Shown here one piece after another: positions 3 through 21,870 of a stretch of 64,000 nucleotides of DNA (position 1 is the first letter of the stretch; every line of letters starts with the position of its first letter). The position numbers and the translations under genes are program-made. This DNA is from Streptomyces sp. SAI-127 (GTDB taxonomy: Bacteria > Actinomycetota > Actinomycetes > Streptomycetales > Streptomycetaceae), in the NCBI RefSeq assembly GCF_029894425.1, contig NZ_JARXYJ010000002.1:319815-383814 (forward strand), written 5' to 3'. The notes beneath the pieces were generated by a model that saw only the letters and a program-made list of their open reading frames with translations, was not told the origin of the DNA and ran no database searches.

Positions 3-1226
3 CGCGTGCTGCAGTTCGCGCCGTTCGGGTTCGACGCCTCTGTCTGGGAGGTGCTGATGGCCCTGGCAGGCGGTGGCACGCTGATCATGGCCGGTGCGGT
101 GGAACGGGCCGAGCCGGACCGGCTGGCCGCGCTGGTCGTCGGCGGCGGGGTGGAGGTGGCGACCGTGCCGCCGTCGGTACTGGACGTGCTGCGGCCGCGG
201 GAGTGGGCCACGGTGGGCACACTGTTCACGGCCGGGGAACGGCTGGAGGGGCATCTCGCGCGGCGCTGGGCCGCAGGGCGGCGGCTGTTCAACGCCTACG
301 GGCCCACCGAGACCACGGTGTGTGCCACGGTCGGCGCGTGCGACACGGCCGACCCGCAGGCACCGTCCATCGGCGGTGCGATTCTCCGCACCCGGGTGTA
401 CGTCCTGGACGCTTCGCTGCGGCCGGTGCCCCCCGGGGTGGCCGGCGAACTGTTCATCGCGGGCGCGCAGGTGGCCCGCGGGTACCTCGGGCGGCCGGCG
501 CTGACGGGCGAGCGTTTCCTGCCCGACCCCTACACGGGCGACGGGCGGCGCATGTACCGGTCCGGGGACCGGGTGCGCCGGCTGGCGGACGGGCGGCTCG
601 AGTTCCTGGGCCGCGTCGACGATCAGGTCAAGGTGCGCGGTTTCCGGATCGAACCGGGGGAGATCGAAGCCGTCCTCACCGCCCACCCGGCGATCCGCAC
701 GGCCGTGGTCACCGCCCACGGGGACGACGCCGAACGGAGGCTGATCGCCTACTCGGTCCCCGCCGACCGGGGCGAGGGCCTGCCTCCCACCGCCGAGCTG
801 CGGGCCTTCGCGGGCGACCGGCTCCCGGCGTTCATGGTCCCCGCGGTCTTCGTCGAGCTCGCCGAACTGCCCCTGACCACCAACGGCAAGGTCGACCGGG
901 CCGCCCTGCCCGACCCGGCCGGTGAGGCACGTATGGGCACGGCGCAGGCGTACGTGGCACCCCGCACCGGGGCCGAGGACGTGATCGCCGGTATCTGGGC
1001 GGAGCTGCTGGGGGTCGAACGGGTCGGCGTGCAGGACAACTTCTTCGACCTGGGCGGGCACTCCCTGCTGGCCACCCAGCTGGTGTCCCGCATCCGGGAG
1101 GCGTTCGACGTCGACCTGACCCTCGCCGAGGTCTTCGAGGAGCCCACGATCGAGGCGCTCGCCGCTGTGGTCGCCGCGGACGGCGGGACCGAGGACGGGG
1201 CAGAGTACGAGGAGTTCGAACTGTAG
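3..1226 (+). CDS. NRPS, C-terminal adenylation-PCP module (5' end outside window)
   Basis: The reading frame is open at the left edge, so this is the C-terminal ~407 residues of a larger synthetase. It starts inside the adenylation core (FDASVWE), followed by NAYGPTETT, the YRSGD ATP-binding motif, the GRVDDQVKVRG hinge and TNGKVDR with the catalytic lysine. A peptidyl carrier domain ends the protein, with the phosphopantetheine serine in LGGHSLL (codon 1062-1064). Aligned by eye to GrsA, the pocket reads D-A-W-T-F-A-A-V-C plus K, one or two changes from the phenylalanine code, so Phe or a close aromatic is my prediction. No thioesterase, epimerisation or condensation domain follows, so the chain must be passed on or released by another protein. 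A hairpin lies just downstream. Confidence 0.93.
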   Translation, partial: RVLQFAPFGFDASVWEVLMALAGGGTLIMAGAVERAEPDRLAALVVGGGVEVATVPPSVLDVLRPREWATVGTLFTAGERLEGHLARRWAAGRRLFNAYGPTETTVCATVGACDTADPQAPSIGGAILRTRVYVLDASLRPVPPGVAGELFIAGAQVARGYLGRPALTGERFLPDPYTGDGRRMYRSGDRVRRLADGRLEFLGRVDDQVKVRGFRIEPGEIEAVLTAHPAIRTAVVTAHGDDAERRLIAYSVPADRGEGLPPTAELRAFAGDRLPAFMVPAVFVELAELPLTTNGKVDRAALPDPAGEARMGTAQAYVAPRTGAEDVIAGIWAELLGVERVGVQDNFFDLGGHSLLATQLVSRIREAFDVDLTLAEVFEEPTIEALAAVVAADGGTEDGAEYEEFEL

Positions 1227-1252
1227 GCGTCCTCCTCAGGGAGGACACTCCG

Positions 1253-1290
1253 GACACCGCCCGTCCCTCACGTGGGGGACGGGCGGTGTC
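1253..1290 (+). terminator. Hairpin terminator after NRPS gene
   Basis: Perfect 15-bp arms (1253-1267 and 1276-1290) around an 8-base loop, 27 bases past the NRPS stop codon. There is no long T run, which is normal for high-GC actinobacterial terminators. It separates the NRPS transcript from the ABC transporter genes. Confidence 0.75.
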
Positions 1291-1371
1291 GTCCCTCCCT
1301 CACACGGGCGCCGTGAAAGCTGGCTCTGTGCCGTGACGACCGCCGACCCCGTTCTCTCTAGGGTTTTCACC

Positions 1372-2325
1372 ATGGAGAAGACGATCGATGAGTCGGAAGC
1401 GACGATCGAGGTCAGTGACGTACGCAAGCGCTTCGGGAGCACCCAGGCGCTCGACGGGATGACGTTCACCGTCAGGCCCGGTCAGGTCACCGGCTTCGTC
1501 GGTCCGAACGGCGCCGGGAAGTCCACCACGATGCGGGTGATCCTCGGCCTCGACAGGCCGGACACGGGAACCGCCCTGGTCGGCGGACGCCCCTACCGGG
1601 ACCTGCGCACACCGCTGAAGCACATCGGGGCGCTGCTGGACGCCGCCGCTGTGCAGCCCAGCCGCTCCGCCCGCCACCACCTGCTGTGGCTGGCCCACTC
1701 GCAGGGGCTCAACGCCGCCCGGGTCGACGCGGTGCTTCGCCAGGCCGGTCTGCAGGACGTCGCCCAGCGCAAGGCCGGTGGGTTCTCCCTCGGCATGCGG
1801 CAGCGGCTCGGCATTGCCGCGGCCCTCCTCGGCGACCCGCCGGTCGTCATGCTGGACGAGCCGTTCAACGGGCTCGACCCCGAGGGCTTCATGTGGATGC
1901 GGGGCTTCCTCGCCGCCCTCGCGGCTCAGGGCCGGGCGGTGCTCGTCTCCAGCCACCTGATGAGCGAACTCCAGGACACCGCGGACCACGTGGTGGTCGT
2001 CGGCCGGGGCAAGGTCCTCGCCGACATGAGCGTGCGTCAGCTGCTGGAGTCCATGTCCGAGGGGCGGGTCACGCTGCGCACGTCCGCCCGCGACGACGCC
2101 ATGACGGTGCTGGCACGCGCCGGCGCCACCGTCAGCTCCACCGGCACGGACACCCTCAGCGTCACCGGCATGGCGGCCGAGAACGTCGTCTCCCTGCTCG
2201 GCGCCCACGGGGTGCCGTTCTCGGAGGTCTCCTCGCACCGCGCGTCACTGGAGGAGGCCTACATGGAACTCACCCGGGATGCCGTGCAGTACCACGGGAT
2301 GATGCCCGAGGAGGCCGGTCGATGA
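1372..2325 (+). CDS. ABC transporter ATP-binding protein
   Basis: About 317 residues; the nucleotide-binding subunit of an ABC-2 type exporter. Visible motifs are the Walker A site GPNGAGKST, the signature FSLGMRQR, Walker B VVMLDEPFNGLDPEG and the H-loop SSHL. The C-terminal third is the variable extension seen in drug and lantibiotic exporters. I chose ATG at 1372 because AGGG lies about 9 bases upstream; an in-frame GTG at 1333 would add 13 residues. The stop overlaps the ATG of the next gene (ATGA), so the permease is translationally coupled. Lying between NRPS and tailoring genes, it probably exports the peptide or gives self-protection (inference). Confidence 0.93.
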   Translation: MEKTIDESEATIEVSDVRKRFGSTQALDGMTFTVRPGQVTGFVGPNGAGKSTTMRVILGLDRPDTGTALVGGRPYRDLRTPLKHIGALLDAAAVQPSRSARHHLLWLAHSQGLNAARVDAVLRQAGLQDVAQRKAGGFSLGMRQRLGIAAALLGDPPVVMLDEPFNGLDPEGFMWMRGFLAALAAQGRAVLVSSHLMSELQDTADHVVVVGRGKVLADMSVRQLLESMSEGRVTLRTSARDDAMTVLARAGATVSSTGTDTLSVTGMAAENVVSLLGAHGVPFSEVSSHRASLEEAYMELTRDAVQYHGMMPEEAGR

Positions 2326-3875
2326 CCTCCACCCTCACCCCGCCCCGCGCGGCCGCCCGCTCGGACCGCGGCGGCTTCGTACGGCTGCTGCACGCGGAAT
2401 GGACCAAGTTCCGCACCGTGCGCGGCTGGGTGGCGAGCAGCGCCGGCGCCGTCCTGGTCATCTGCCTGGTCGGGTTGCTGGCCACCGCCGCAGGCAACCA
2501 GTCGGGCCCGGACGGCAGTTCCGCGCTGCCGGTCGGTCCTGGCGGCCAGGCGGTCAACGACAGCTTCTACTTCGTGCACCAGCCGCTCCAGGGCGACGGC
2601 ACCGTCACGGTGTCCGTGTCCTCGCTGACCGGCGTGGTCGCCACCGACCCGAAGAGCAGCCGGGCCGGTCTCGCCCCCTGGGCCAAGGCCGGGATCATCG
2701 TCAAGGACGGCCTGGACCAGGGCTCGGCGTACGCGGCGATGATGCTGACGGGCGCGCACGGCGTGCGCATGCAGTACGACTACACGCACGACATCGCGGG
2801 GACGGCCGGCCAGGCCACCCGGGAGCAGCCGGTCTGGCTGCGCCTGCAGCGCTCCGGCGACACCGTCACCGGCTATCAGTCGACGGACGGCGCCAAGTGG
2901 ACCGAGGTCGGCAGCGCTCGGCTGTCCGGACTGTCGGCGACCGCACAGGTCGGGCTGTTCGTGACTTCTCCGTCGGTGGAGGAGAAGACCGGCACCGGCA
3001 CCGGCTTCGCCCCCGCCGTGGCCACCGGAGCCTTCGACCGGGTGGACCTCGGCGGGCAGTGGAGCGCGGGCAACTGGCAGCAGCGCCAGGTCGGTGACGG
3101 CGCCGGCACCTCCGGGAGCTACAGCCAGACGACCAAGGGCCAGGCCGTCGCGTCGGGCAGCGGCTTCACCGTCACCGGCGCCGGAGACATCGCGCCGGTC
3201 GTGGGCGGGCCCGCCACCAGCGGCGTGCGGACCATCGAGAACTTCCTCGTCGGGGCCTTCGCCGGGCTGATCATCATGGTTGTCGTCGGCGCGGGCTACA
3301 TCACCGTCGAGTACCGGCGGGGCCTGATCGGCGTCACCCTGGCGGCCAGCCCGCGCCGCGGCCGCGTCCTGGTGGCCAAGGCACTCGTGGTGGGCAGCGT
3401 CGGGTTCGTCGTGGGGCTGGTCTCCGCGGCCGTCATGGTGCCCTTCGGTGGACAGCGGTCGGAGTCGAACGGCTTCCCGGTGCTGACCGTGCCGAGCGGC
3501 ACCGAGCTGCGGGTCGTCGTCGGCACGGGCCTGCTGCTCGCCGTCGCGAGTGTTCTCGCTCTCGCCGTCGGCACCATCCTGCGGCGCAGCGCCGTCGCCA
3601 TCACCGTGGTCGTCGTCGGGATGGTGCTGCCCTACCTCCTCGCCACCGCCTCGATCCTGCCGGACGGCGCCTCCGAATGGCTGCTGCGGGTCACCCCCGC
3701 CGCCGGCTTCGCCATCCAGCAGAGCGTCGCGCGCTACGAGCAGGTCGTCACCGTCTACGCGCCCGGCTCCGGCTACTTCCCGCTGGCGCCCTGGTCCGGC
3801 TTCGCCGTGCTGTGCGCCTACGCGGCCGTGGCGTTCGCCGCCGCCGTGGTCCTGCTGCGCCGGAGGGACGTATGA
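2322..3875 (+). CDS. ABC transporter permease with large extracytoplasmic domain
   Basis: 517 residues, overlapping the ATPase gene by ATGA. An N-terminal cytoplasmic stretch (HAEWTKFRT, typical of ABC-2 permeases) leads to one membrane segment near residues 35-55. A soluble region of about 250 residues follows, probably outside the membrane and resembling a concanavalin-like beta-sandwich (segments such as WLRLQRSGDTVTGYQS). Several more membrane segments lie in the C-terminal 200 residues. Permeases with such an inserted domain occur in actinobacterial exporters; here it may bind the peptide or sense the surface (inference). The gene overlaps the next permease by ATGA, so the three genes form one exporter operon. 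Confidence 0.85.
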   Translation: MTSTLTPPRAAARSDRGGFVRLLHAEWTKFRTVRGWVASSAGAVLVICLVGLLATAAGNQSGPDGSSALPVGPGGQAVNDSFYFVHQPLQGDGTVTVSVSSLTGVVATDPKSSRAGLAPWAKAGIIVKDGLDQGSAYAAMMLTGAHGVRMQYDYTHDIAGTAGQATREQPVWLRLQRSGDTVTGYQSTDGAKWTEVGSARLSGLSATAQVGLFVTSPSVEEKTGTGTGFAPAVATGAFDRVDLGGQWSAGNWQQRQVGDGAGTSGSYSQTTKGQAVASGSGFTVTGAGDIAPVVGGPATSGVRTIENFLVGAFAGLIIMVVVGAGYITVEYRRGLIGVTLAASPRRGRVLVAKALVVGSVGFVVGLVSAAVMVPFGGQRSESNGFPVLTVPSGTELRVVVGTGLLLAVASVLALAVGTILRRSAVAITVVVVGMVLPYLLATASILPDGASEWLLRVTPAAGFAIQQSVARYEQVVTVYAPGSGYFPLAPWSGFAVLCAYAAVAFAAAVVLLRRRDV

Positions 3876-4648
3876 GAAGGGCCGGACACGCCGAGTGGAC
3901 CAAGCTGCGCACCGACGCCGGCAACGGCTGGCTGGTGCTGGGTGTGGTCGCCCTGACCGTGGCGGTCGGCGCCGCGGTGGCCATGACCTCCCGCTGCGAT
4001 GCTGTGGGCTGCGGTGAGGACCCGGCCCGGCTGAGCCTGACCGGGGTGATGGTCGGGCAGGTCGTCGTCGCCATCGTGGCGGTGCTCATGGTGGGCAACG
4101 AGTACAGCAGCGGCATGATGAAGACGACCCTGGCGGCCATGCCACGCCGCCTCACCGTGCTGGGCGCCAAGGCCTCCGTCCTCACCGCGGTGATGCTGGC
4201 GGCGGGCACGGTCGCCGTCCTGGCGTCCCTGCTGACCGGGCGCATCGTCCAGCCGGACCGCGGGTTCACCGAGGCACATGGTTACAGCGCCCTGTCGCTG
4301 GCCGACGGGCCCACCCTGCGGGCCGCCGTGGGCTCGGTGCTCTACCTCGCCCTGATCGGTCTCCTCAGCCTGGGCATCGCGATGGTCGTACGGAACTCCG
4401 CGACCGCCATCGGCATCGTCCTGGCGCTGCTGTTCGTCTTCCCGATTCTCGCCCAGGTGGTCGCCGACCCGGACTGGCAGCGCCACCTGCAGCAGATCTC
4501 CCCGATGACCGCGGGCCTCGCCGTCCAGAGCACCATCGACCTGGGCAAGCTGCCCATCGGCCCCTGGAAGGGCCTGGGCGTGCTGGCCCTGTGGGCCGCC
4601 GGCGCCCTGGCCGCGGGCGCCTGGCTGCTGCGCGCCCGGGACGCGTGA
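3872..4648 (+). CDS. ABC transporter permease
   Basis: 258 residues and the second membrane subunit of the exporter. It begins with the same HAEWTKLRT signature as its neighbour and has about six hydrophobic segments, with NEYSSGMMKTTLAAMPRR in the first cytoplasmic loop as in ABC-2 family permeases. Its ATG overlaps the stop of the upstream permease. It ends 42 bases before a large inverted repeat that probably ends or regulates transcription here. Substrate cannot be told from sequence; the context suggests the cluster's peptide. Confidence 0.87.
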   Translation: MRRAGHAEWTKLRTDAGNGWLVLGVVALTVAVGAAVAMTSRCDAVGCGEDPARLSLTGVMVGQVVVAIVAVLMVGNEYSSGMMKTTLAAMPRRLTVLGAKASVLTAVMLAAGTVAVLASLLTGRIVQPDRGFTEAHGYSALSLADGPTLRAAVGSVLYLALIGLLSLGIAMVVRNSATAIGIVLALLFVFPILAQVVADPDWQRHLQQISPMTAGLAVQSTIDLGKLPIGPWKGLGVLALWAAGALAAGAWLLRARDA

Positions 4649-4690
4649 CGGGCAACCGGCCAAGGACGCCGAACCCCGAGCACCGCACCA

Positions 4691-4742
4691 CCGGTTCGCG
4701 TGTTCAACCGACGCACAGGATGCGGTTGAACACGCGAACCGG
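4691..4742. promoter_or_regulatory. 20-bp perfect inverted repeat; StrR-like operator or terminator
   Basis: Arms 4691-4710 and 4723-4742 are exact reverse complements around a 12-base centre. The inner half-sites read GTTCAACCG and CGGTTGAAC. The StrR-family consensus as I remember it is GTTCRACTG-N11-CRGTYGAAC, so this is a near match with a 12-base spacer. The cluster encodes a StrR-type activator at 18.6 kb. The site lies between the exporter genes and the first small gene at 4906, where an operon promoter is needed. It could equally serve as a strong terminator for the exporter operon; no T run follows. Confidence 0.6.
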
Positions 4743-4905
4743 CCGTCCCGCACCGGGATTTGTGGATGAGCAGGCACCGTTGCCGTACGCTGAGAGCGCC
4801 TAATCACGCGACAACACGTTTCGCGGCATTCCGACGAACCTCATTTCCGGTTCCCCGATGCTGCGCGTGCCCGTGTTCGCCGTCGGCTCGCTTTCGGAGG
4901 TTCCG

Positions 4906-5198: not shown

Positions 5199-5537
5199 AT
5201 GGATGAGCTGACGCAACGCCTGAGCGACGCACAGCCGGTGGAGGTGGGCGGCCCCAAGCCCACCCTGGAGGAGCTGCACACCCGGCTCACCGACATCGGC
5301 ACCGTGTTTGTGAAGTTCACCGACACCCGAGGTGGCACCGACCTCGGCATCCGCCTGGACCAGGAGGCGACCGACCTGGGCGCGGCCGACTTCGAGCAGG
5401 GCGCCGGCACCGTCCACGTCGAGGGCACCCTGATCCTCAACGACGACCCGGTGCGCTGCATCGCCGACATCGACCTGGCCACGCTCAAGGGAACCGGTCG
5501 CCTCGTCGTCGTGGAAATGTCCGAGGCCGTCGGCTGA
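5199..5537 (+). CDS. Small protein of unknown function in the amino-acid operon
   Basis: 112 residues, ATG at 5199 with GAGAGG just upstream. The sequence is acidic and looks like an alpha-helical start (residues 1-45) followed by alternating beta strands (FVKFTDTRGGTDLGIRL, VHVEGTLILND, GRLVVVEM). No cysteine-rich motif, carrier serine motif or MbtH signature is present. It lies 17 bases after one small unknown gene and 12 bases before the PLP enzyme gene, so the four are probably one operon. I do not recognise the family and do not assign a function. Confidence 0.72.
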   Translation: MDELTQRLSDAQPVEVGGPKPTLEELHTRLTDIGTVFVKFTDTRGGTDLGIRLDQEATDLGAADFEQGAGTVHVEGTLILNDDPVRCIADIDLATLKGTGRLVVVEMSEAVG

Positions 5538-5549: not shown

Positions 5550-6563
5550 ATGAGGGCGGTGAGCTCTCCGCACCCGGCACTTCCCCCGGTCGGGACCACT
5601 CCGGTCGTGGATGTCGCCGTGACCGTGCACGGAGTCGAGCGCAGGCTCCGACTGAAACTCGAATCGCACAATCCCCAGGGCTCGTTGAAGGACCGCATCG
5701 CCGTCTTTCTCATCGAGGACGTGGCCGACCGCATCGACAAGGACATCGGCATCATCGAATCGACGTCGGGGAACCTCGGTGTCGCGATGGCAGCCGAATG
5801 CCAGGAGCGTGGAATTCCCTTCAACGCCGTCGTCGATCCCCGCACCAGTTCCTTCTTCGTGGACCGCATTCGTGAACTGGGCGCGCGGGTCACGGTCGTC
5901 GACGAACCGGATTCCTCAGGTGGTTATCTTCTCAATCGCATCCGGCACGTCCGGGAACAACTGCGCACCCGTCCCGGACTCGTGTGGACCAACCAGTACC
6001 GCAGCGAAGCCAACCCCCGCGCCCACTTCGCCACCACGGCGCCCGAACTCAGACAGCAGGTTCCCGGCCCCGCGACTCTCTTGGTGCCCGTCTCCACGGG
6101 TGGCACCCTCGCCGGGCTTGCCCGGTACGTCGCCGAGACCGACGTCCCCTGGACGCTCGTCGGGGTCGACGTGCACGGCTCCGCCGCCCTCGGTGGGGCA
6201 CCGCCCGGCCGGCGCCTGCTGTCCGGGATCGGGGCCAGCTGCCCGTCGTACTTCCTGCCCGCGGACAGGGCGCAGGCCCAGTACGTCGATGTCGGCGACG
6301 CGATCGCGGCCTGCCTGTGGCTGTCCGAGCACGCCGGGATCGGCGTCGGCGGCAGTTCCGGAGCCACCGTCGCCGCCGCACTGCGGCTGTTCGGCGAGGA
6401 CCCCGACACGCACGAGCTGGTCTGTCTGTGCCCCGACGGCGCGGACCGGTACCTGAGCACTGTCTACCACCCCGGCTGGCGGGCGGCCCACGGCATCACA
6501 GCGGCCCGGATCGGCGGCGTCACAGCCCCCGGCGGGGCGGACCCTGCCGAAGCGTGGGGGTGA
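5550..6563 (+). CDS. Cysteine-synthase-like PLP enzyme (SbnA/VioB type)
   Basis: 337 residues, fold type II PLP enzyme. The Schiff-base lysine is K47 in NPQGSLKDR; ESTSGNLGV is the substrate-carboxylate loop and VSTGGTLAGL the phosphate-binding glycine loop. SbnA (staphyloferrin B) and VioB (viomycin) are relatives that replace the beta-substituent of activated serine on the way to 2,3-diaminopropionate. The usual partner, an ornithine-cyclodeaminase-like dehydrogenase (SbnB/VioK), is absent from this window. The next gene is a carbamoyltransferase homologue, the same pairing used to make beta-ureidoalanine in viomycin. I infer a beta-amino or ureido-alanine precursor; a cysteine or O-ureidoserine type product is possible. 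The ribosome site is weak (AGG). Confidence 0.85.
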   Translation: MRAVSSPHPALPPVGTTPVVDVAVTVHGVERRLRLKLESHNPQGSLKDRIAVFLIEDVADRIDKDIGIIESTSGNLGVAMAAECQERGIPFNAVVDPRTSSFFVDRIRELGARVTVVDEPDSSGGYLLNRIRHVREQLRTRPGLVWTNQYRSEANPRAHFATTAPELRQQVPGPATLLVPVSTGGTLAGLARYVAETDVPWTLVGVDVHGSAALGGAPPGRRLLSGIGASCPSYFLPADRAQAQYVDVGDAIAACLWLSEHAGIGVGGSSGATVAAALRLFGEDPDTHELVCLCPDGADRYLSTVYHPGWRAAHGITAARIGGVTAPGGADPAEAWG

Positions 6564-6585: not shown

Positions 6586-7527
6586 ATGGGCGCAAGGGAA
6601 CGCGGACTGCTGACGCTGTCCGACCTGACCGGGCAGGACCTGGAACGCCTCGCGTCCCGGTCCCGGGAGCTGTTCCACGACGAGTCGGCGCACGACCGTC
6701 CGCTGCGCGACAAGGTTGTCGGGGTGCTGTTCACCAAGACGTCGACGCGCACCAGAACCGCATTCAGCGCCGGCACCGTCAAACTAGGAGGATTTCCGCT
6801 GCTGTACGGTCCCGGAGACCTCCAGACTGCCACCGGGGAAACGCTTCAGGACACCGGGCGCGTCTTCGGATCCATGCTCGACGGACTCGTCGCACGCACG
6901 GCCGGACCCCTGAGGGAATTGCGGGAGATATCCCGCGCCGGCGACCTTCCTGTCATCAACGCGATGGCCACGGAGGAGCATCCGACACAGGGAATCTGCG
7001 ACCTGGCCACCATGCTCATGGAATTCGGAGCACTGGACGGCCTGACGGTGCTGTACGTGGGGGAGGGAAACAACACGGCGTCGGCACTCGCGCACGGGCT
7101 CTCCCGCCTGCCGCACTGCGACGTCACGTTTGCCACACCACCCGGCTACGGACTCGACCAGCAGATCCTCGACGACGCCGCCAAGCAGGCGGCCGCAGTC
7201 GGCGGAAGCGTCCGACAGGTCCATGACCTCGACGAACTCCCGCACCAGGTACACGTCGTCTACACCACCCGCTGGCAGACCACCGGCACTGTCAAGCCGG
7301 ACCCCGACTGGCGCCGCGTCTTCCAGCCGTTCCACGTCGACGAGCGTCTCATGGACCGCTGGCCCGACGCGAAATTCATGCACGACCTGCCGGCACACCG
7401 CGGCGAGGAGGTCTCGGCAGCCGTCCTCGAAGGGCCCCGCTCGATCGCCTGGAAACAGGCCCGCATGAAACTCACCAGCGCCATGGCCGTCCTCGAGGAA
7501 GTCATCGCCGGGACGGCCCGCTCCTAG
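6586..7527 (+). CDS. Ornithine-carbamoyltransferase-like protein
   Basis: 313 residues, about the length of OTCase. The carbamoyl-phosphate loop STRTRT is at residues 53-58 and HPTQ at 132-135. The ornithine-binding HCLP motif of true OTCases reads HDLP at 266-269, so the cysteine that contacts the amino-acid substrate is replaced by aspartate. That suggests a different acceptor amine. VioL and CmnL are OTC-like enzymes that carbamoylate 2,3-diaminopropionate in tuberactinomycin clusters, and the adjacent SbnA/VioB-like enzyme makes such an acceptor plausible here. ATG 6586 has GGAG upstream and lies 22 bases from the previous stop. A housekeeping arginine-pathway role is unlikely given the context. 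Confidence 0.85.
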   Translation: MGARERGLLTLSDLTGQDLERLASRSRELFHDESAHDRPLRDKVVGVLFTKTSTRTRTAFSAGTVKLGGFPLLYGPGDLQTATGETLQDTGRVFGSMLDGLVARTAGPLRELREISRAGDLPVINAMATEEHPTQGICDLATMLMEFGALDGLTVLYVGEGNNTASALAHGLSRLPHCDVTFATPPGYGLDQQILDDAAKQAAAVGGSVRQVHDLDELPHQVHVVYTTRWQTTGTVKPDPDWRRVFQPFHVDERLMDRWPDAKFMHDLPAHRGEEVSAAVLEGPRSIAWKQARMKLTSAMAVLEEVIAGTARS

Positions 7528-12736: not shown

Positions 12737-12756
12737 CACGATTTCGCCGCACGTAT

Positions 12757-13314
12757 TTACGCTTCGCTTTCCCACTGTCCGCCGAGCGCGTTCCAGCGTT
12801 CAGCGGACAGTGCGAACATCAGCATGTCGACGCGTTCCCGCGTGACCCGGGCGAACACGGCGCGCTGCCCCGAGCACACGAATCCGAGTCGCTCCAGCAG
12901 GCGCGCGGAACGCTCGTTGCGTACGTCGCACTCGGCCGCCGCCGTGTGCAACCCCCCGGCGAACAGGGCGCGCAGCACACCTGCGACCGCCTCGGTGGCG
13001 TACCCCTGTCCCTGCCGGTCACGGGCCAGGCTGAAGCCCAACTCCGCCTCCTGGCCCGACCGCCGGCGGTTCACGGCGACATCGCCCGCCACGCGGCCGT
13101 CGGCCTTCACCTCGATCGCGTACGGGAACCAGCCCGGCGCGTTCGGATCGCTCCGGGAGTAGGCGCGGAGCAGACGGTGCGCCGACTCCAGGGACAGCGG
13201 GAATTCCCAGTCCTGAAAACGGGCGACCTCCGGGTCGGATCGATAGGCGATGAAATCTTCTACATCGCTGTGAGTGAAACGCCGGAGCCGAAGGCGCGGG
13301 GTGTCCATCTGCAT
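12757..13314 (-). CDS. GNAT N-acetyltransferase (RimJ-like)
   Basis: 185 residues from ATG 13314; an ATG two codons later is also possible. The protein starts TPRLRLRRFTHSDVEDF, characteristic of RimJ/RimL-type GNATs, and has the acetyl-CoA loop as RDRQGQGYATEA followed by NERSARLLERLGF. It ends 20 bases from the fusion gene and is read toward it, with divergent dpgA on its other side. It could acetylate the peptide or a precursor as resistance or tailoring, or be an unrelated passenger. The sequence does not decide. Confidence 0.85.
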   Translation of the reverse strand: MQMDTPRLRLRRFTHSDVEDFIAYRSDPEVARFQDWEFPLSLESAHRLLRAYSRSDPNAPGWFPYAIEVKADGRVAGDVAVNRRRSGQEAELGFSLARDRQGQGYATEAVAGVLRALFAGGLHTAAAECDVRNERSARLLERLGFVCSGQRAVFARVTRERVDMLMFALSAERWNALGGQWESEA

Positions 13315-13469
13315 CCGGCAAGGATCCCATGGCGGCCTCCGATGCAAAAGTCCACACGGCGCGCTGCCAGTTGATGCCTTTACCCTCCCCGCGTCATAGT
13401 GGGCCGTTGCCACTGTTGCCCGATCGGTTTTCCGATGGGCTCTCCGGCCGACTCCGGGAAGGAAGAAAA

Positions 13470-13532
13470 GTGTTAGTACCGAAGTTTCTCGTGCGCAGCA
13501 AGACCCGTATGTGGGGGTGGACCTTCCGATGA
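13470..13532 (+). CDS. 20-codon leader ORF with TTA codon, overlapping dpgA
   Basis: A GTG at 13470 preceded by GGAAGGAAG starts a 20-codon frame whose second codon is TTA (13473-13475). Its TGA (13530-13532) overlaps the dpgA ATG at 13529 as ATGA. The peptide is basic and aromatic at its end (KTRMWGWTFR). The strong ribosome site and exact overlap suggest translational coupling, so that TTA decoding (bldA tRNA) would gate dpgABC translation. This is inference from the arrangement; the peptide may have no function of its own. Confidence 0.5.
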   Translation: MLVPKFLVRSKTRMWGWTFR

Positions 13533-14680
13533 CCCGAGCCGCCAGTCTTCCGGGTGCAGCGCCCCTGGCACCGCCCGCCCTTGCGGGGAAGAACACGACC
13601 GGCACCGCCAGGATCGCGGGCGTCGGCACCGCGACCAGCGAACAGTCGTACTCGCAGGCCGAACTCCTCGACCTCTTCGCCATCACCGACCCCAAGGTCC
13701 GCTCCGTCTTCCTCAACAGCGCGATCGAGCGCCGCTTCCTGGCCGTGCCGCCCCGGGGCGCAGACGGCACACCGCAGGCCGAGGCGCAGGGCGAACTGCT
13801 CGCCAAGCACAAGCGGCTTGCCCTCGACATGGGCGCCAGGGCCGTCCGGGCGTGCCTGGCCGACTCCGGCCTGGACCTGGCGGACATCGACTACCTGTGC
13901 TGCGTCACCACGACCGGCTTTCTCACCCCGGGCCTGAGCGCCCACCTGATGCGCGCCATGGGTATCCGCTCCGGCACCAGCCGCGTCGACGTCGTCGGCA
14001 TGGGCTGCAACGCCGGGCTCAACGCCCTGAACGCCACGGCCGGCTGGGCCGTGGCCAACCCCGGCAAGGTCGCCGTGATGGTGTGCACCGAAGCCTGCTC
14101 GGCCGCGTACGTCATCGACTCCACACTGCGCACCGCCGTCGTCAACAGCCTCTTCGGCGACGGGGCGGCCGCCATCGCCCTGGTCGCCGACCCGCCGGAC
14201 GCCGCGTACGGCCCGCCGGTCGTGACGCCCGACCCCGGCAGCCCGCGCATCCTGGGATTCGCCAGCCACCTCATCAGCGAGGCGATCGACGCGATGCGCT
14301 ACGACTGGGACGACGGGCAGGGCAAGTTCAGCTTCTACCTCGACCCGAATGTCCCCTACGTCGTCGGAGCCAACGCCGAACAGGTCGTCGACCGCCTGCT
14401 CGGGGCCGCCGGACTGCGCCGCAGCGACGTCCGCCACTGGCTGGTGCACTCGGGCGGCAAGAAGGTCATCGACGCCGTACGGATCAACCTGGGCCTGACC
14501 CGCCACGACGTACGGCACACCACCGGCGTGCTGCGGGACTACGGCAACCTGTCGAGCAGCTCCTTCCTGTTCTCCTACGAGCGGCTGCTGACGGAGCGTG
14601 CGGCCCGGCCCGGCGACCACGGTGTCCTCATGACCATGGGGCCCGGTTCGACCATCGAGACTGCCCTGGTGCAGTGGTGA
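13529..14680 (+). CDS. dpgA: Type III polyketide synthase, 3,5-dihydroxyphenylacetyl-CoA synthase
   Basis: 383 residues with ATG 13529. This start places the nucleophile at C160 (MGCNAGLNAL), the number I recall for characterised DpgA enzymes, which favours it over the GTG at 13511. The rest of the Cys-His-Asn triad is seen in WLVHSGGKKV and YGNLSSSSF. The enzyme condenses four malonyl-CoA units toward 3,5-dihydroxyphenylacetyl-CoA, the scaffold of 3,5-dihydroxyphenylglycine. It is followed 11 bases later by dpgB. Translation may be coupled to the overlapping TTA leader. Confidence 0.95.
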   Translation: MTRAASLPGAAPLAPPALAGKNTTGTARIAGVGTATSEQSYSQAELLDLFAITDPKVRSVFLNSAIERRFLAVPPRGADGTPQAEAQGELLAKHKRLALDMGARAVRACLADSGLDLADIDYLCCVTTTGFLTPGLSAHLMRAMGIRSGTSRVDVVGMGCNAGLNALNATAGWAVANPGKVAVMVCTEACSAAYVIDSTLRTAVVNSLFGDGAAAIALVADPPDAAYGPPVVTPDPGSPRILGFASHLISEAIDAMRYDWDDGQGKFSFYLDPNVPYVVGANAEQVVDRLLGAAGLRRSDVRHWLVHSGGKKVIDAVRINLGLTRHDVRHTTGVLRDYGNLSSSSFLFSYERLLTERAARPGDHGVLMTMGPGSTIETALVQW

Positions 14681-14691
14681 CGGAGGATCAG

Positions 14692-16736
<2,045 letters not shown>

Positions 16737-16761: not shown

Positions 16762-16787
16762 CCGACGGGGTCACCCGGCCCCGTCGG
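16762..16787. terminator. Bidirectional hairpin between dpgC and prephenate dehydrogenase
   Basis: Nine-base arms (16762-16770, 16779-16787) with an 8-base loop between two convergent genes; the right side runs into the end of the reverse-strand gene. Fits a shared terminator. Confidence 0.6.
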
Positions 16788-17943
16788 TGCGGACCTCGAC
16801 CGCAATCGGATCACGGGACTCTGCCGGACGCGTCGCACGGTGTGGCGCGTCCGGCAGAGCGACCATGAGGGTGGCCCAGCCGCCGGCCCGCAGCTTCCGG
16901 GAGAGGTCCGCCACCGACGTCTGCGGGACGGACAGCGACACGCTGCCGTACGGCAGTCCCTGGGCGTTCTCCAACCGGACGTCCTCGATACGGCCGCCGA
17001 GCTCCTCGACGGCGCCGAACAGCCGGGCCAAAGTGCCCGGTCGGTCGGACAAGGCCACGCTGAGCCGGACCTCGGCCGGCACCCCCGACGCCGGTCCCGC
17101 GACCCGGGCTCGCCCCCGGTGACCGTGCCGGAGCAGGGTCTCCAGCTCTCCTTCCGCCCGCTCGCGCACCTCGTCGTCGACGTGACCGAGGGCCCGCAGC
17201 GCCCCGACGGCCCTGCCGAGGTCGGCGGCATAGGCGTCGAGGACGTCGGCCAGCGCGTCCGCGTTGGCGGTGAAGATGTCCCGCCACAGCTCCGGGGCGC
17301 CGCCCCCCGGGCCGGCGACGTTCCTCAGTCCCTGTCCGGCCACCCGGATGTCGGCCTCCGTCGCGTCCACCAGCGTCGCGGCCATCAGCGTGGAGATCAG
17401 CTGCGGCGCGTGCGAAGTGAGGGCCAGGGTGCGGTCGTGCACGAGCGGGTCCATGATCACCGGCACTCCGGAGCACAGGGAGACGAGTTCCAGCGCCCGG
17501 TTCAGGACCGATTGGTCGGTGCGCGCCGACGGAGTGAGGATCCACGGCCGGTCCTCGAAGACGTCGGCCCGTGCGGCGAGTGGTCCGGAACGCTCGGTGC
17601 CCGCGAGCGGGTGGCCGCCGATGAAGCTGGACGGCTCAGCGCCCGCCAGCCGCAGGTCGTCGTACGGCCGTGTCTTGACGCTGGCCACGTCCGTATAGGC
17701 GTGGGCGACGCCTCGGCGCTGCAGTTGTTCGAGCACCGAACCGGTGTGTGTCGGGGGGACGGCGATCACGGCGAGGTCGACGCGTTCGGCCGGTGTGCCG
17801 ACCGAACCTGCTCCCATGGCCTCCGCCGTCCTGACGGCCGTGGTGTTCACGTCCTCGAGATGGACCGTCAGGCCACGTCGGGTCAGTGCGAGCGCGACGG
17901 AGGTGCCGATGGCGCCGGTTCCGACGACCGTGACGGTCTTCAC
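16771..17943 (-). CDS. Prephenate dehydrogenase with C-terminal ACT domain
   Basis: 390 residues. The NAD-binding start is VVGTGAIGTSVA, followed by the IGGHPLAGTERSG active-site segment and a helical dimerisation domain with TSHAPQLIS. An ACT-like regulatory domain occupies about residues 285-355 (RLSVALSDRPGTLARLFGAVEELGG). The enzyme makes 4-hydroxyphenylpyruvate, the substrate of HmaS, so it feeds hydroxyphenylglycine synthesis. A cluster-borne copy is common in Hpg-containing peptide clusters. It reads away from the regulator gene, leaving a ~690-base divergent control region. Confidence 0.93.
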   Translation of the reverse strand: MKTVTVVGTGAIGTSVALALTRRGLTVHLEDVNTTAVRTAEAMGAGSVGTPAERVDLAVIAVPPTHTGSVLEQLQRRGVAHAYTDVASVKTRPYDDLRLAGAEPSSFIGGHPLAGTERSGPLAARADVFEDRPWILTPSARTDQSVLNRALELVSLCSGVPVIMDPLVHDRTLALTSHAPQLISTLMAATLVDATEADIRVAGQGLRNVAGPGGGAPELWRDIFTANADALADVLDAYAADLGRAVGALRALGHVDDEVRERAEGELETLLRHGHRGRARVAGPASGVPAEVRLSVALSDRPGTLARLFGAVEELGGRIEDVRLENAQGLPYGSVSLSVPQTSVADLSRKLRAGGWATLMVALPDAPHRATRPAESRDPIAVEVRTDGAG

Positions 17944-18635: not shown

Positions 18636-19703
18636 GTGAATATTTTGGTTCAGTCGGTTCGTGCGCTGGAATCAACGTCCGATGAAAGTGCCGACTTAAT
18701 CGGTGCGACAAGACATTCCATAAACCCCAGGAAAAGCGCTTTCACGGTTCCGGTCGCCGTGCTTCTCCCTGGTGATTCCCTTCGCGCACTGGGACAGGAC
18801 GAAGAACATGTGGCGCGGCTCGCGGAAATCGACGCCGCACTGCCTCCGATTCTCGTTCACCGGCTCACCATGCGGGTGATCGACGGAATGCACCGACTGC
18901 TGGCCGCCCGGGTCAAGGGTCAGAAGACGATCGAGGTCGAGTTCTTCGACGGAACTCCTGAGGACGCGTTCCTGTACGCGGTGGAAGCGAACATCTCGCA
19001 CGGGCTGCCCCTTTCCCTGGCCGACCGCCGGGCCGCGGCCACCCGGATCATCGCCTCGCACCCCCAGTTGTCGGACCGGGCGATCGCCCGGGCGGCCGGG
19101 CTGGGAGCCAAGACGGTGGCGGCCATCCGTCGCCGCTCGTCCGGGGGCGAACCGCACCTGAGCGCGCGCATCGGCAGGGACGGCAAGGTACGTCCGCTCA
19201 ACAGCGTCGCCGGCAGACAACGGGCCGCCAAACTCATCGCGGAACGACCGGAAGCCTCCCTGCGTGAAGTGGCCAGGCTCGCCGGTATCTCGCCCGCGAC
19301 GGTCAGCGACGTCCGCAGACGGCTGGAAACCGGTCAGCCACCGGTGACGGAAGGCGTCAAATCCCCTTTGGCGCAGACGAGTTCGGCGCAGACGCCGCCC
19401 GCCGCCAAACGGGGGACGGACCGCCGCCTGCCCATTGTCCCGTCAGATCCCGCAAACGTGCTCGAAAAGTTGCTTCGTGATCCTTCGCTGCGCCACAAAG
19501 AGGAGGGTCGGCAATTGCTGCGGCTGCTGCGGCAGAACGCGATCGCCGCGAACGAGTGGGACGAACTGATGGCCGCCGTCCCGAGCCACTGCGGAGCGCT
19601 GGTGGTGGGCCTCGCGCGTCACTATGCCGAGATCTGGACGGATTTCGCGCAACTGTTGGACGAGCGCGTGCGGACCGAGGACCGGAAGCCGGACGACAAG
19701 TGA
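18636..19703 (+). CDS. StrR-type ParB/HTH pathway activator (contains TTA codon)
   Basis: 355 residues. The N-terminal domain is ParB-like (VPVAVLLPGD, DGMHRLLAARVKG), followed by a helix-turn-helix region (ADRRAAATRI, LSDRAIARAAGLGAKTVAAIRR) and a second HTH-like stretch (REVARLAGISPATVSDVRRRL). This is the architecture of StrR, NovG and the glycopeptide activators, which bind GTTCRACTG-type inverted repeats. Codon 21 (18696-18698) is TTA, so expression should depend on the bldA leucyl tRNA. The most likely target in the window is the inverted repeat at 4691-4742. The GTG start has only a weak GGGG site. Confidence 0.92.
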   Translation: MNILVQSVRALESTSDESADLIGATRHSINPRKSAFTVPVAVLLPGDSLRALGQDEEHVARLAEIDAALPPILVHRLTMRVIDGMHRLLAARVKGQKTIEVEFFDGTPEDAFLYAVEANISHGLPLSLADRRAAATRIIASHPQLSDRAIARAAGLGAKTVAAIRRRSSGGEPHLSARIGRDGKVRPLNSVAGRQRAAKLIAERPEASLREVARLAGISPATVSDVRRRLETGQPPVTEGVKSPLAQTSSAQTPPAAKRGTDRRLPIVPSDPANVLEKLLRDPSLRHKEEGRQLLRLLRQNAIAANEWDELMAAVPSHCGALVVGLARHYAEIWTDFAQLLDERVRTEDRKPDDK

Positions 19704-19719
19704 CCCGACCTGAGGTCTC

Positions 19720-19753
19720 TCAGGCGTGCGGCCCGGACCGGCCGCACGCCTGA
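19720..19753. terminator. Bidirectional hairpin between regulator and glycosyltransferase
   Basis: Arms of 14 bases (19720-19733 and 19740-19753) with a 6-base loop, placed between two convergent genes. No T run. Fits a shared terminator. Confidence 0.75.
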
Positions 19754-19770
19754 CGCGGACATGTGTGCCA

Positions 19771-21870
19771 TCAACCGCCGCACCGGTAGAGGGTGCCCTG
19801 CGTGTCCGCACTGTTCCCGCCGTACGCGGTGGCCGGTACGGCGGTACAGGCGGTCTTCACCCAGGAGCGCACCCCGGTGATGGCCGCGTTGCCCTTCCCC
19901 TGGGTCTGCGCGAACCCTTGCCAGCCGTCGGCGGCGAGGACGACGTAGCGCAACCGCCCCTCGGCGACCAGCTGCTTGACGTCGGTCACGGTGGGCGTGG
20001 GGGCTCCGCCGCTGAACCCGCCCATCGGCAGTACTTTCGCGCCGGTCGCCAGGATGTAGTTCCAGGACATGACGGCGGAGTCGGCGGCGAAGACGAACGT
20101 TGCGCCCTCGCGGTGCTGTTCGGCGTAACGGAGCAGACCGTGCTGGGAGGCCGTGAGCGTGTCGGACTCGTTCAGGGAGGCTTCGGCGGCGGCCGTGCCC
20201 TGCGGTGCGTTGCTGCCGTGCACCACGTTCGCCGCCCTGTGCACCGCGCTGCCGCCCGTGTTGAACGGGCCGGCCGTGGCGTCCATCGCGGTGCCGGCGT
20301 ACTGCGGATCGAGCACCGACAGCGACCAGGCCGCGGGCGCCGCCAGCAGGGTGACCAGGGAGGCCACCAGGCCGCCGGTGGCCAGCCACCCGCGGTGCAG
20401 CCCCTTGCGGTGGGCGAGGGTCAGGGCCGTGATCGCGCCCGCGCCCACCGCCATGAGCAGCCAGGGCAGCCAGGGCAGGAAGTCGGGGTAGAGGAAGCAG
20501 AGGAAGACGCTCCACACCAGCTCCGCCGCGACCGCCGTGCGCAGTGCCCATGTCCTGCGGCCGTCCCGGTACGCGCGCCAGAACATCACGATGCCGGTGG
20601 CGGACAGCGCGGCCAAGGCGGGCGCGAGCATCGCCACATAGGCGGTGTGCGGCACCTCGATGGCGCTGAGCACACCGGCACTGACGGTCAACCACAGTCC
20701 CCACAGCACGAATCCGCCGCGGATCCTGTCGGTGCGCGGGGTGGTGCGCCGCCAGCGCAGACCCAGTGCCAGGCTCATCAGCGCGAGGGGGTACAGCCAG
20801 CCCACCTCGGGTGCGAAGCGGCTGCCGAGCAGCTTGCCCGGCGTGGGGCCGCCGCCGGAGGACCCGTCGTTGGACGGGCCGGCGCCGCTGCCGGCTCCGT
20901 CCGGCCGGTCCGGGGCCGGGGTACCGGCGTTCGGCGGGGCGCCCGCGGTGCCGACCGCGCCGGTCATCTGGTCGACCGAGCCCTCCACCAGGTCGTCGGA
21001 GAAACGGTTGAAGCCGTTGTAGCCGAACACCATGGTGACGGCGCTGTTGTCGGTCGTGCCGTCGACGTAGGGGCGATCGGAGGCCGGCGTGACGGTCAGG
21101 AGCAGCACCGAGGACAGCGAGACCGCAGCCGTGACCGCGCCGGCGGCCAGGACGTGACCGGTCCTGCGGCGCAAGGGTCCGGGGGCCAGTAGCAGGTAGG
21201 CGAGGGCGAGGGCCGGCAGGACCACCCAGGCCTGCAGCATCTTGGCCTGGAAGCCCAGCCCGATCCAGGCACCGGCCGCCAGCAGGGGGAGCAGTCTGGC
21301 TCCGAGCACGGCCCGCTGACAGGCGTCGGCGGCCAGGACCAGGCACATGGTCAGCGCGCCGTCCTCCATCGAGTGCCCGAACATGGACGCCAGCACGGGG
21401 GTCAGCGTCATGATGCCGGCGGCGAGGAGACCCGGTACGGGACCGGACCAGCGCCGCACCACCCGGTAGGTGACGAGCACCGTGACCACGCCCTCGACGA
21501 CCTGGGGGAGCGTCAGGGACCATGCGTGGAAGCCGAAGACGCGGGCGGAGAGTGCCTGCGGCCACAGGAATCCGGCGAGCTTGTCGATGGTCAGGGTGGC
21601 GCCCGGGTCCAGCGCGCCGTAGAAGAACGCCTCCCAGCTCTCCGACATGCTGCGGGCGGCGACGGCGTAGAACGGAGCGTATCCGCTGGTCGTGATGTTC
21701 CAGGAGTAGAGCAGGGCCGCCAGGGCGGCGACGGCCAGGAGCGCCGGGCGCGCCCAGCGCGGCTGGTCCGCGGGGGACTTCCACACCTCCCAGCCACGCC
21801 GGACGTCGGCCTTCGGAGGGGATGTGGGTTCGGGTAAGGAAGCGGTGGGGGAGTCGAGAGCGGTAGTCAT
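19771..21870 (-). CDS. GT39-like polyprenyl-phosphate-dependent membrane glycosyltransferase
   Basis: 699 residues with a cytoplasmic start, about 11-13 membrane segments and a C-terminal extracytoplasmic domain. The first loop holds GYAPFYAVAARSMSESW and DKLAGFLWPQ, typical of the ArnT/PMT (GT39-like) enzymes that use lipid-linked sugars outside the membrane. A low-complexity Gly/Pro/Ala/Ser stretch (residues ~315-345) sits in a later loop. Teicoplanin and ramoplanin clusters carry mannosyltransferases of this general type, so mannosylation of the exported peptide is possible. Homologues also occur as ordinary cell-envelope genes, so membership of the cluster is not certain. Confidence 0.85.
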   Translation of the reverse strand: MTTALDSPTASLPEPTSPPKADVRRGWEVWKSPADQPRWARPALLAVAALAALLYSWNITTSGYAPFYAVAARSMSESWEAFFYGALDPGATLTIDKLAGFLWPQALSARVFGFHAWSLTLPQVVEGVVTVLVTYRVVRRWSGPVPGLLAAGIMTLTPVLASMFGHSMEDGALTMCLVLAADACQRAVLGARLLPLLAAGAWIGLGFQAKMLQAWVVLPALALAYLLLAPGPLRRRTGHVLAAGAVTAAVSLSSVLLLTVTPASDRPYVDGTTDNSAVTMVFGYNGFNRFSDDLVEGSVDQMTGAVGTAGAPPNAGTPAPDRPDGAGSGAGPSNDGSSGGGPTPGKLLGSRFAPEVGWLYPLALMSLALGLRWRRTTPRTDRIRGGFVLWGLWLTVSAGVLSAIEVPHTAYVAMLAPALAALSATGIVMFWRAYRDGRRTWALRTAVAAELVWSVFLCFLYPDFLPWLPWLLMAVGAGAITALTLAHRKGLHRGWLATGGLVASLVTLLAAPAAWSLSVLDPQYAGTAMDATAGPFNTGGSAVHRAANVVHGSNAPQGTAAAEASLNESDTLTASQHGLLRYAEQHREGATFVFAADSAVMSWNYILATGAKVLPMGGFSGGAPTPTVTDVKQLVAEGRLRYVVLAADGWQGFAQTQGKGNAAITGVRSWVKTACTAVPATAYGGNSADTQGTLYRCGG

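What the first reader, a model, noticed from the sequence alone, without database searches (positions are those of the whole stretch)
3..21870. Hpg/Dpg peptide cluster with an unusual set of precursor and tailoring genes
Seen: complete Hpg genes (hmaS, fused hmo-hpgT), dpgABC, a CmlA-type beta-hydroxylase, an SbnA/VioB-like plus OTC-like pair, an ABC exporter, a StrR-type activator and a GT39-like glycosyltransferase near one NRPS module with a Phe-like pocket. Known Hpg/Dpg products such as glycopeptides, feglymycin and the ramoplanin/enduracidin group do not, to my knowledge, combine Dpg with a ureido- or diaminopropionate-type residue. The product may be a new lipid-II-type or other peptide; this is inference.
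Basis: partly seen in the sequence, partly recalled or inferred. Interest (0 to 1): 0.8.

Follow-up and report, generated by a model that had tools for sequence, protein, structure and literature searches.

The report
Giant 24-module aromatic-peptide gene cluster
These genes are the right-hand end of a roughly 114-kilobase bacterial gene cluster that probably builds a 24-residue peptide from an unusual mix of rare amino acids; no product was found for it in the papers searched, so it is a good lead for a new natural product.

Summary
The block is the right end of a cluster of about 114 kb reaching C2:227912, 92 kb left of the window. The left part holds four NRPS proteins with 24 modules (6+2+7+9), MbtH, a fused ABC exporter, an SbnB-like dehydrogenase, a VioC/OrfP-type arginine hydroxylase and a VioD-type capreomycidine synthase. 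One cluster thus encodes hydroxyphenylglycine, dihydroxyphenylglycine, a diaminopropionate/ureido residue and capreomycidine, plus a CmlA-type hydroxylase and a GT39 sugar transferase. It lacks tested defining features of glycopeptides (seven modules, X domain, P450s) and ramoplanin-type lipopeptides (starter domain). Two single-contig genomes carry the same gene order, 6-2-7-9 split and five epimerase positions, with 14 and 15 of 24 pocket codes identical; two marker searches hit the same 5 of 392 genus genomes. Best reading: one non-lipidated, probably mannosylated, aryl-glycine-rich 24-mer, assembled A-B-D-C. Gene content and conservation are shown; peptide length, several residue identities, order, sugar and target are inferred. 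No product was found in print; MIBiG could not be searched.

The parts
1..1226 (+). 3' end of NRPS protein D (10,933 aa, C2:288239-321040): last adenylation domain (code DAWTFAAVCK, Phe-like) and carrier domain, acidic tail EYEEFEL, no thioesterase
   Evidence: Pfam AMP-binding and PP-binding; code by alignment; tail EYEAFEL in G308, EYEEFDL in G298
1333..2325 (+). ABC transporter ATPase
   Evidence: PF00005 101.5 bits; best NCBIfam hit is the lantibiotic-protection ATPase family, 177.7 bits, below its cut-off of 309.75
2322..3875 (+). ABC-2 type permease with a weak DUF1349-like stretch
   Evidence: PF12679 41.9 bits; DUF1349 32.0 bits against cut-off 32.4
3872..4648 (+). second ABC-2 type permease
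   Evidence: PF12679 39.6 bits
4858..5181 (+). small conserved protein of unknown function (107 aa)
   Evidence: 77 homologues, none with a named function in the table; in L065, L066 and L074, G298 and G308
5199..5537 (+). small conserved protein (112 aa), function unknown
   Evidence: only a marginal CBF_beta match, 25.3 bits against cut-off 25; conserved next to SbnA
5550..6563 (+). SbnA-family PLP enzyme, first step of 2,3-diaminopropionate
   Evidence: TIGR03945 275.3 bits, best of its NCBIfam hits but below the equivalog cut-off of 349.95
6586..7527 (+). transcarbamylase with a changed second-substrate site, proposed diaminopropionate carbamoyltransferase
   Evidence: keeps STRTRT; YTDVWASMGQ of an archaeal OTCase reads YTTRWQTTGT here and HCLP reads HDLP; SbnA-like gene near 3 of 4 distant relatives
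7673..9256 (+). CmlA-type diiron beta-hydroxylase (acting on carrier-bound amino acids, from recall)
   Evidence: CmlA_N 282.5 bits; PDB 8a90 425 bits, CmlA 311 bits
9300..10325 (+). HmaS, 4-hydroxymandelate synthase-like (Hpg pathway)
   Evidence: HPPD equivalog 316.6 bits, above its cut-off of 277; HmaS rather than HPPD from its place next to Hmo-HpgT
10322..12736 (+). fused Hmo-HpgT (Hpg pathway)
   Evidence: FMN_dh residues 23-356 plus Aminotran_1_2 residues 449-795
12733..13374 (+). unknown 213-aa protein, fast-evolving
   Evidence: no Pfam or NCBIfam hit; 78 and 72% in L065 and L066, 44-45% in G298 and G308, at the left cluster end in G298
13511..14680 (+). DpgA type III PKS
   Evidence: NF042429 644.1 bits, cut-off 425
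14677..15393 (+). DpgB
   Evidence: ECH_1 31.6 bits; a homologue in 80 of 80 DpgA loci
15390..16736 (+). DpgC dioxygenase
   Evidence: NF042432 718.1 bits, cut-off 530
16771..17943 (-). prephenate dehydrogenase (4-hydroxyphenylpyruvate supply)
   Evidence: PDH_N 101.7 bits; present in G308, not found in the G298 stretch
18636..19703 (+). HTH regulator, probably StrR-like
   Evidence: HTH_23 31.8 bits; relatives in 24 of 80 DpgA loci and in G298 and G308
19771..21870 (-). GT39/YkcB-type polyprenyl-phosphate sugar transferase (mannosyltransferase-like)
   Evidence: PMT_2 73 bits, YkcB_C 74.6 bits; 72% homologue at the left end of the G298 cluster, two partial matches (70% and 38%) at the right end in G308

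Best explanation
This is the right end of one conserved biosynthetic cluster of about 114 kb (C2:227912 to 341684, i.e. window -91902 to 21870). Free precursors are made by dedicated enzymes: Hpg (HmaS, Hmo-HpgT, TyrA supply), Dpg (DpgABC plus HpgT), 2,3-diaminopropionate (SbnA + SbnB), its ureido form beta-ureidoalanine (transcarbamylase), and capreomycidine or a hydroxylated form (VioC/OrfP-type hydroxylase + VioD-type cyclase). A 24-module NRPS without a complete starter C domain joins them in the order A-B-D-C and releases the chain from the thioesterase at the end of C. CmlA beta-hydroxylates a carrier-bound residue. The ABC systems export the peptide and protect the cell, and the GT39 enzyme adds mannose outside. 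Predicted chain: [aryl-Gly]-[aryl-Gly]-Thr-Asp-[aryl-Gly]-D-[basic]-[basic]-[aryl-Gly]-Asp-D-Tyr-D-[aryl-Gly]-Phe-D-X-Gly-Gly-Gln-like-Phe-Tyr-D-[aryl-Gly]-[aryl-Gly]-capreomycidine-[aryl-Gly]-Gly-Phe. Shown: gene content, module and epimerase counts, pocket codes, conservation. Inferred: residue identities (especially which DALS pocket is Hpg or Dpg, and what the two DVGEATAVD modules load), module order, export and protection roles, mannosylation and a cell-envelope target.
For: 24 A domains in proteins of 6526, 2131, 8134 and 10933 aa. Upstream SbnB family; VioC 426.9 bits (cut-off 418.6); VioD 536 bits (cut-off 390.9); PDB best hits L-arginine beta-hydroxylase 4m23 and aminotransferase 4m2j. 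Same cluster with 6-2-7-9 modules, same order and five long A-domain gaps (4.5-4.8 kb) at the same places in G308 and G298; 14 and 15 of 24 codes identical, the rest differing at 1-3 of 10 positions. Both markers (OTC, module A2) hit the same 5 of 392 genomes. Order A-B-D-C: each of 5 E domains is followed by a DG-type C domain and no other C domain has that motif, which joins A to B; TE on C (PF00975); TubC_N docking domain at the start of C and a conserved acidic tail at the end of D. Transcarbamylase site change and SbnA linkage.
Against: SbnA and SbnB score below their equivalog cut-offs. The hydroxylase scores higher against GntD (466.1, cut-off 345) than VioC (426.9). HmaS passes the HPPD equivalog cut-off. 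The capreomycidine pocket assignment (C4, DAEDIGAITK) is weak: S. phyllanthi has DAEEIATITK and DADENGTITK without a VioD above cut-off, though its assembly is fragmented; two VioD-bearing Dpg clusters show no such code in the stretches read; and C4 is not specially close to the capreomycin domain CmnG (228.8 bits, behind many others). The DALS pockets do not match the Hpg (DIFHLGLLCK, DAVHLGLLCK) or Dpg (DPYHGGTLCK) codes read from an Amycolatopsis orientalis vancomycin-type NRPS, and whole-domain identity does not favour Hpg or Dpg either. Gene order A-B-C-D is not the proposed assembly order. The TE nucleophile region reads AQSGS, not GxSxG. In or43 the NRPS A domains come out in pieces in several frames, so it does not test the order.
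Confidence: 0.65

Rival explanations
1. Two products: A-B-C make a 15-residue peptide released by the TE, and D makes a separate 9-residue peptide or acts in another order.
For: D has no thioesterase and follows C in the gene order; there is a gap between C (ends 287384) and D (starts 288239).
Against: All four NRPS proteins lie together in both other single-contig copies. D has neither a loading module nor a release domain; it ends in an acidic tail and C begins with a TubC_N docking domain.
Confidence: 0.15
2. A known but differently described antibiotic family: the product has been isolated but sits in papers or databases that could not be searched.
For: The dpg-side block is in six Streptomyces-group genomes seen here (own, L065, L066, L074/or43, G308, G298); subscription journals and MIBiG were not available.
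Against: The only two papers holding both capreomycidine and hydroxyphenylglycine are a prediction-tool paper and an A-domain review; no paper holds any of four code strings searched.
Confidence: 0.15
3. The transcarbamylase does not make ureidoalanine: it carbamoylates another amine (ornithine to citrulline or a side chain on the finished peptide), and diaminopropionate is used as such.
For: The two DVGEATAVD modules look like ornithine/diaminobutyrate pockets (recalled codes), so the free diamine may be what is loaded. All its best NCBIfam and PDB matches are ornithine transcarbamylases.
Against: Its ornithine-site motifs are changed, and SbnA-like genes lie near 3 of 4 distant relatives.
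Confidence: 0.3
4. It is a glycopeptide or ramoplanin-type antibiotic cluster of an ordinary kind.
For: Shared Hpg/Dpg genes, CmlA, mannosyltransferase-like gene, probable StrR-like regulator.
Against: 24 modules; no P450 on contig C2 (28 hits elsewhere in the genome); no Trp-halogenase-family match on C2 (4 elsewhere); no condensation-like X domain before the TE; only half a C domain at the start of A.
Confidence: 0.04

Closest known systems
Tuberactinomycins (viomycin/capreomycin) precursor genes
   Same: SbnA-, SbnB-, VioC-, VioD- and carbamoyltransferase-type genes together in one cluster (roles of the viomycin genes other than VioC/VioD recalled; that CmnA-A1 loads diaminopropionate is from PMC12400406, part 1 of 3 read)
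   Different: 24 modules instead of five, aryl-glycine pathways, and every one of the 24 modules has an A domain
Feglymycin
   Same: NRPS peptide rich in Dpg, a 13-mer (start of the abstract of PMC5133696 in the listing); linear, Hpg-rich and without P450 crosslinks from recall
   Different: 24 modules against 13 residues; five E domains, so no strict D/L alternation; extra capreomycidine and diaminopropionate genes; sugar transferase
Ramoplanin/enduracidin lipodepsipeptides
   Same: Long NRPS peptides; ramoplanin carries a di-mannose (start of the abstract of PMC4635501 in the listing); Hpg-rich and fused Hmo-HpgT in enduracidin from recall
   Different: They have 17 residues and an N-terminal fatty acid (same abstract); here no complete starter C domain, plus Dpg and capreomycidine genes
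Glycopeptide antibiotics (vancomycin, teicoplanin)
   Same: Hpg, DpgABC, CmlA-type beta-hydroxylase, probable StrR-like regulator, GT39-type transferase (the last three recalled for some glycopeptides)
   Different: Seven modules, X domain and P450s were tested and not found here
Dpg clusters with capreomycidine synthase in Dactylosporangium siamense (L088) and Nonomuraea guangzhouensis (L095)
   Same: Hmo/HpgT, DpgABC, CmlA, MbtH and a VioD above cut-off on one contig
   Different: Different NRPS pocket codes; no SbnA, SbnB or OTC match over 75 bits in the stretches read

Membership tests
Glycopeptide antibiotic cluster | Seven-module NRPS | tested here: not met
   24 modules
Glycopeptide antibiotic cluster | P450 crosslinking enzymes in the cluster | tested here: not met
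   28 PF00067 hits in the genome, 0 on contig C2
Glycopeptide antibiotic cluster | X domain before the TE | tested here: not met
   no Condensation-family hit between C2:284726 and 288437, while the vancomycin-type control has two in its last protein, G204:C61:106247 and 109370
Glycopeptide antibiotic cluster | Hpg and Dpg pathway genes | tested here: met
   (HmaS by position, see observation check)
Ramoplanin/enduracidin lipodepsipeptide cluster | Starter C domain and fatty-acid activation genes | tested here: not met
   NrpsA starts with the C-terminal half of a C domain only; no stand-alone acyl ligase among the genes scanned
Ramoplanin/enduracidin lipodepsipeptide cluster | 17 modules | tested here: not met
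   24 modules
Feglymycin-type cluster | 13 residues with alternating D and L (alternation recalled) | tested here: not met
   24 modules, 5 E domains
Tuberactinomycin cluster | Capreomycidine and diaminopropionate precursor genes | tested here: met
   VioC and VioD above cut-off; SbnA/SbnB family but below equivalog cut-offs
Tuberactinomycin cluster | Pentapeptide NRPS with an A-less module | tested here: not met
   24 modules, each with an A domain
Known product cluster (MIBiG) | Same gene order as a characterised entry | not testable with these tools
   no MIBiG access; literature searches showed no match in the rows listed

The most novel reading that the evidence does not exclude
The cluster makes the founding member of a new class of natural peptide: a 24-residue, non-lipidated, mannosylated chain rich in aryl-glycines that also carries capreomycidine and diaminopropionate or ureidoalanine, thereby joining the tuberactinomycin and glycopeptide precursor repertoires, possibly folding into a defined structure that binds a cell-envelope target.
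Probability: 0.5. Interest if true: 0.78.

Novelty: new variant of a known kind. Interest (0 to 1): 0.62.

Why it matters
Peptides containing Hpg and Dpg include important cell-wall antibiotics. A 24-module line without a complete acyl starter or P450s, holding both aryl-glycine and cyclic-guanidine precursor genes, and conserved in module number, order and most pocket codes in three complete copies, implies a selected and useful product. The dpg-side block is present in named type strains (S. pseudovenezuelae DSM 40212, S. humi), so it can be tested. It also offers an apparently dedicated diaminopropionate carbamoyltransferase subfamily that could be assayed directly.

Tried and rejected
Rejected: ordinary glycopeptide and lipodepsipeptide readings; the idea that the left flank belongs to another pathway.

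Led nowhere: deciding Hpg versus Dpg from identity to vancomycin-type A domains or from codes in print; confirming the capreomycidine pocket through CmnG or through other genomes; placing the diaminopropionate module by PDB matches; using or43 to test module order, because its A domains come out in pieces; finding a function for the two small proteins. The 24 codes were first read by motif and finally by alignment. GrsA position numbers, substrate meanings of codes, the residue order of vancomycin and viomycin gene roles are recalled, except where a call is named. In the carbamoyltransferase comparison 2 of 8 distant relatives (L030, L035) had been read in the wrong orientation and were dropped. 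In the genus searches only 4-5 candidates per genome were scored. An early family sample had the transcarbamylase at E <= 1e-60 in 34 of 200 genomes; the surroundings of only four of those relatives were read.

Mended after checking against the calls: cluster length (113,773 bases), the statement on pocket-code conservation (now counted), the counts of regulator and DpgB relatives, the HmaS/HPPD caveat, and the wording on literature searches; confidence lowered by 0.01 for the code count.
Full report
What is there. The window is C2:319815-383814 of a three-contig genome; its first 21.9 kb are the right end of a larger cluster. The two strongest assignments are DpgA (644.1 bits against a cut-off of 425) and DpgC (718.1 against 530). 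The fused Hmo-HpgT is one 804-aa protein with FMN_dh followed by an aminotransferase domain. SbnA and the transcarbamylase are assigned at family level. The HmaS candidate passes the HPPD equivalog cut-off (316.6 against 277) and is called HmaS from its place beside Hmo-HpgT.

The left flank. Eight 20-kb stretches (C2:160001-320000) were fetched. Four NRPS genes run from C2:237011 to 321040 with products of 6526, 2131, 8134 and 10933 aa, called A, B, C and D here (start codons are the first in frame and unverified). All 24 modules have an A domain. Protein C ends in a thioesterase (PF00975, 54.6 bits); D ends with a carrier domain. A starts with the C-terminal half of a condensation domain only, so no acyl starter is evident. 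Upstream lie, in order: SbnB-like (211 bits, cut-off 326.9), VioC/GntD-type hydroxylase (VioC 426.9 against 418.6; GntD 466.1 against 345), VioD capreomycidine synthase (536 against 390.9), then histidine kinase, fused ABC exporter, MbtH and an alpha/beta hydrolase. In the PDB the hydroxylase is closest to 4m23 (L-arginine beta-hydroxylase, 334.3 bits), ahead of CmnC and the 2wbo/2wbq entries that I recall as VioC, and the cyclase to 4m2j (271.7 bits). I recall 4m23 and 4m2j as streptothricin enzymes, so a hydroxylated capreomycidine is possible.

Pocket codes (alignment to motif-anchored positions). A: DALSLGGVIK, DALSLGTVMK, DFWSVGMVHK, DLTKMGHVGK, DALSLGGVIK, DVGEATAVDK. B: DVGEATAVDK, DALSLGTVMK. 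C: DASTVAAVCK, DALSLGTVMK, DALSLGTVMK, DAEDIGAITK, DALSLGTVMK, DILQLGMIWK, DAWTFAAVCK. D: DLTKMGHIGK, DASTVAAVCK, DALSLGTVMK, DAWTVAAVCK, DAWFLGVIAK, DILQLGMIWK, DILQLGMIWK, DAWQFGLIDK, DAWTFAAVCK. By recalled codes these read Thr, Asp, Tyr, Gly, Phe and Gln-like where plain. Eight of 24 modules share a DALS pocket of two sub-kinds (6 GTVM, 2 GGVI). I assign them to Hpg and Dpg by elimination. The control does not confirm this: the Amycolatopsis orientalis vancomycin-type NRPS gives DIFHLGLLCK and DAVHLGLLCK at its Hpg positions and DPYHGGTLCK at its Dpg position (residue order of vancomycin recalled), and whole-domain identity is no closer to these than to its Tyr domains. Five epimerase domains follow A6, C2, D2, D3 and D5.

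Conservation. DpgA relatives in named genomes gave 80 loci, the best of 260. The block from the ABC genes to DpgC, with SbnA and the transcarbamylase, is in 3 of 80: S. pseudovenezuelae DSM 40212, S. humi MUSC 119 and Streptomyces sp. or43. The or43 contig also has VioD, the kinase, exporter, MbtH and hydrolase on the other side of its NRPS. In the genus sample, the transcarbamylase at E <= 1e-135 and module A2 at E <= 1e-180 hit the same 5 of 392 genomes, the own one included; DpgA occurs in 55 of 392. Two of the five, G308 and G298, are single-contig genomes. In both the cluster is present in the same order, with 24 A domains split 6-2-7-9 (one A domain in each reported in two pieces; in G298 these lie in two frames of the B gene) and five long gaps (4.5-4.8 kb, room for an E domain) at the same places; five HHxxVD[AT] motifs typical of E domains are found in each. 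Of 24 ten-letter codes, 14 are identical in G308 and 15 in G298; the others differ at one to three positions. The differences that may change a residue are A5 (GTVM in G298) and the aromatic pockets C7 and D9 (Phe- or Tyr-like).

Assembly order. Each of the five E domains is followed by a DG-type C domain, and no other C domain has that motif; since A ends in an E domain and B starts with a DG-type C domain, A hands to B. B ends in a carrier domain; both C and D begin with DE-type C domains. C carries the thioesterase, so it should act last. C also begins with a TubC_N docking domain (42.6 bits, cut-off 26), and D ends in a conserved acidic tail (EYEEFEL, EYEAFEL, EYEEFDL), as I recall for such docking pairs. 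Hence A-B-D-C and 24 residues. This is inference.

The transcarbamylase. Against an archaeal ornithine transcarbamylase the carbamoyl-phosphate motif STRTRT is kept, but YTDVWASMGQ becomes YTTRWQTTGT and HCLP becomes HDLP. The same letters occur in G308 and G298. Of 8 distant relatives aligned, 2 were read in the wrong orientation and dropped; all 6 others have HDLP and an RW where ornithine transcarbamylase has DVW, 4 of them the full RWQTTG. Of four relatives whose surroundings were fetched, three have an SbnA-like gene near, two of these also SbnB. A diaminopropionate carbamoyltransferase giving beta-ureidoalanine is the likeliest reading, though family models and PDB matches name ornithine transcarbamylase first.

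What is missing. No P450 of 28 hits in the genome lies on C2, and none of the four Trp-halogenase-family matches. No condensation-like X domain precedes the thioesterase, while the vancomycin-type control has two condensation-like hits in its last NRPS protein. So it fails tested features of glycopeptide and ramoplanin-type clusters. [quoted passage not shown]

Literature. Two papers hold both capreomycidine and hydroxyphenylglycine: a prediction tool and an A-domain review (passages of the second). PMC8399532, on genome mining for capreomycidine genes (passages and outline), reports clusters with both vioC and vioD; the words Hpg and hydroxyphenylglycine do not occur in it. The rows listed by other searches showed no such peptide: 20 of 29, 15 of 4,653, 5 of 5, 0 found (four code strings), 9 of 9, 12 of 32, 15 of 2,001. 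Most subscription papers and MIBiG were out of reach, so this is absence from what was listed only.

Wider picture. Dactylosporangium siamense and Nonomuraea guangzhouensis also combine Hpg, Dpg, CmlA and VioD genes, with other NRPS codes, so the pairing of aryl-glycine with capreomycidine genes is not confined to this cluster.

Noticed in passing
window 4858-5181: A 107-aa protein with 77 homologues, none named in the table, many on short metagenome contigs: a conserved orphan family found beside SbnA in this cluster.
   Followed up: partly
window 2322-3875: An ABC-2 permease carries an extra DUF1349-like stretch (32.0 bits against cut-off 32.4).
   Followed up: no
C2:286500-287384 (left of the window): The thioesterase of NRPS protein C has AQSGS where GxSxG is expected, also in G308 and G298.
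   Followed up: partly
L088 and L095: Hpg/Dpg/CmlA clusters with a capreomycidine synthase gene in Dactylosporangium siamense and Nonomuraea guangzhouensis, with different NRPS codes: further unassigned combinations.
   Followed up: partly
L068, L069, L071-L073, L077-L079, L082-L084: Eleven Hpg/Dpg-type loci with a CmlA 82-86% identical to the one here, in Streptomyces, Kitasatospora and Actinomadura; products not identified here.
   Followed up: no
L173 and L174 (S. phyllanthi): A domains 60-62% identical to module C4 with codes DAEEIATITK and DADENGTITK in a fragmented genome without VioD above cut-off, so this pocket may take other basic residues.
   Followed up: partly
Streptomyces sp. or43, contig G202:C67:1455-7367: Further NRPS modules (2835-aa open frame) lie on the far side of the dpg block in or43; no A domain was found there in the G308 and G298 stretches.
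   Followed up: no
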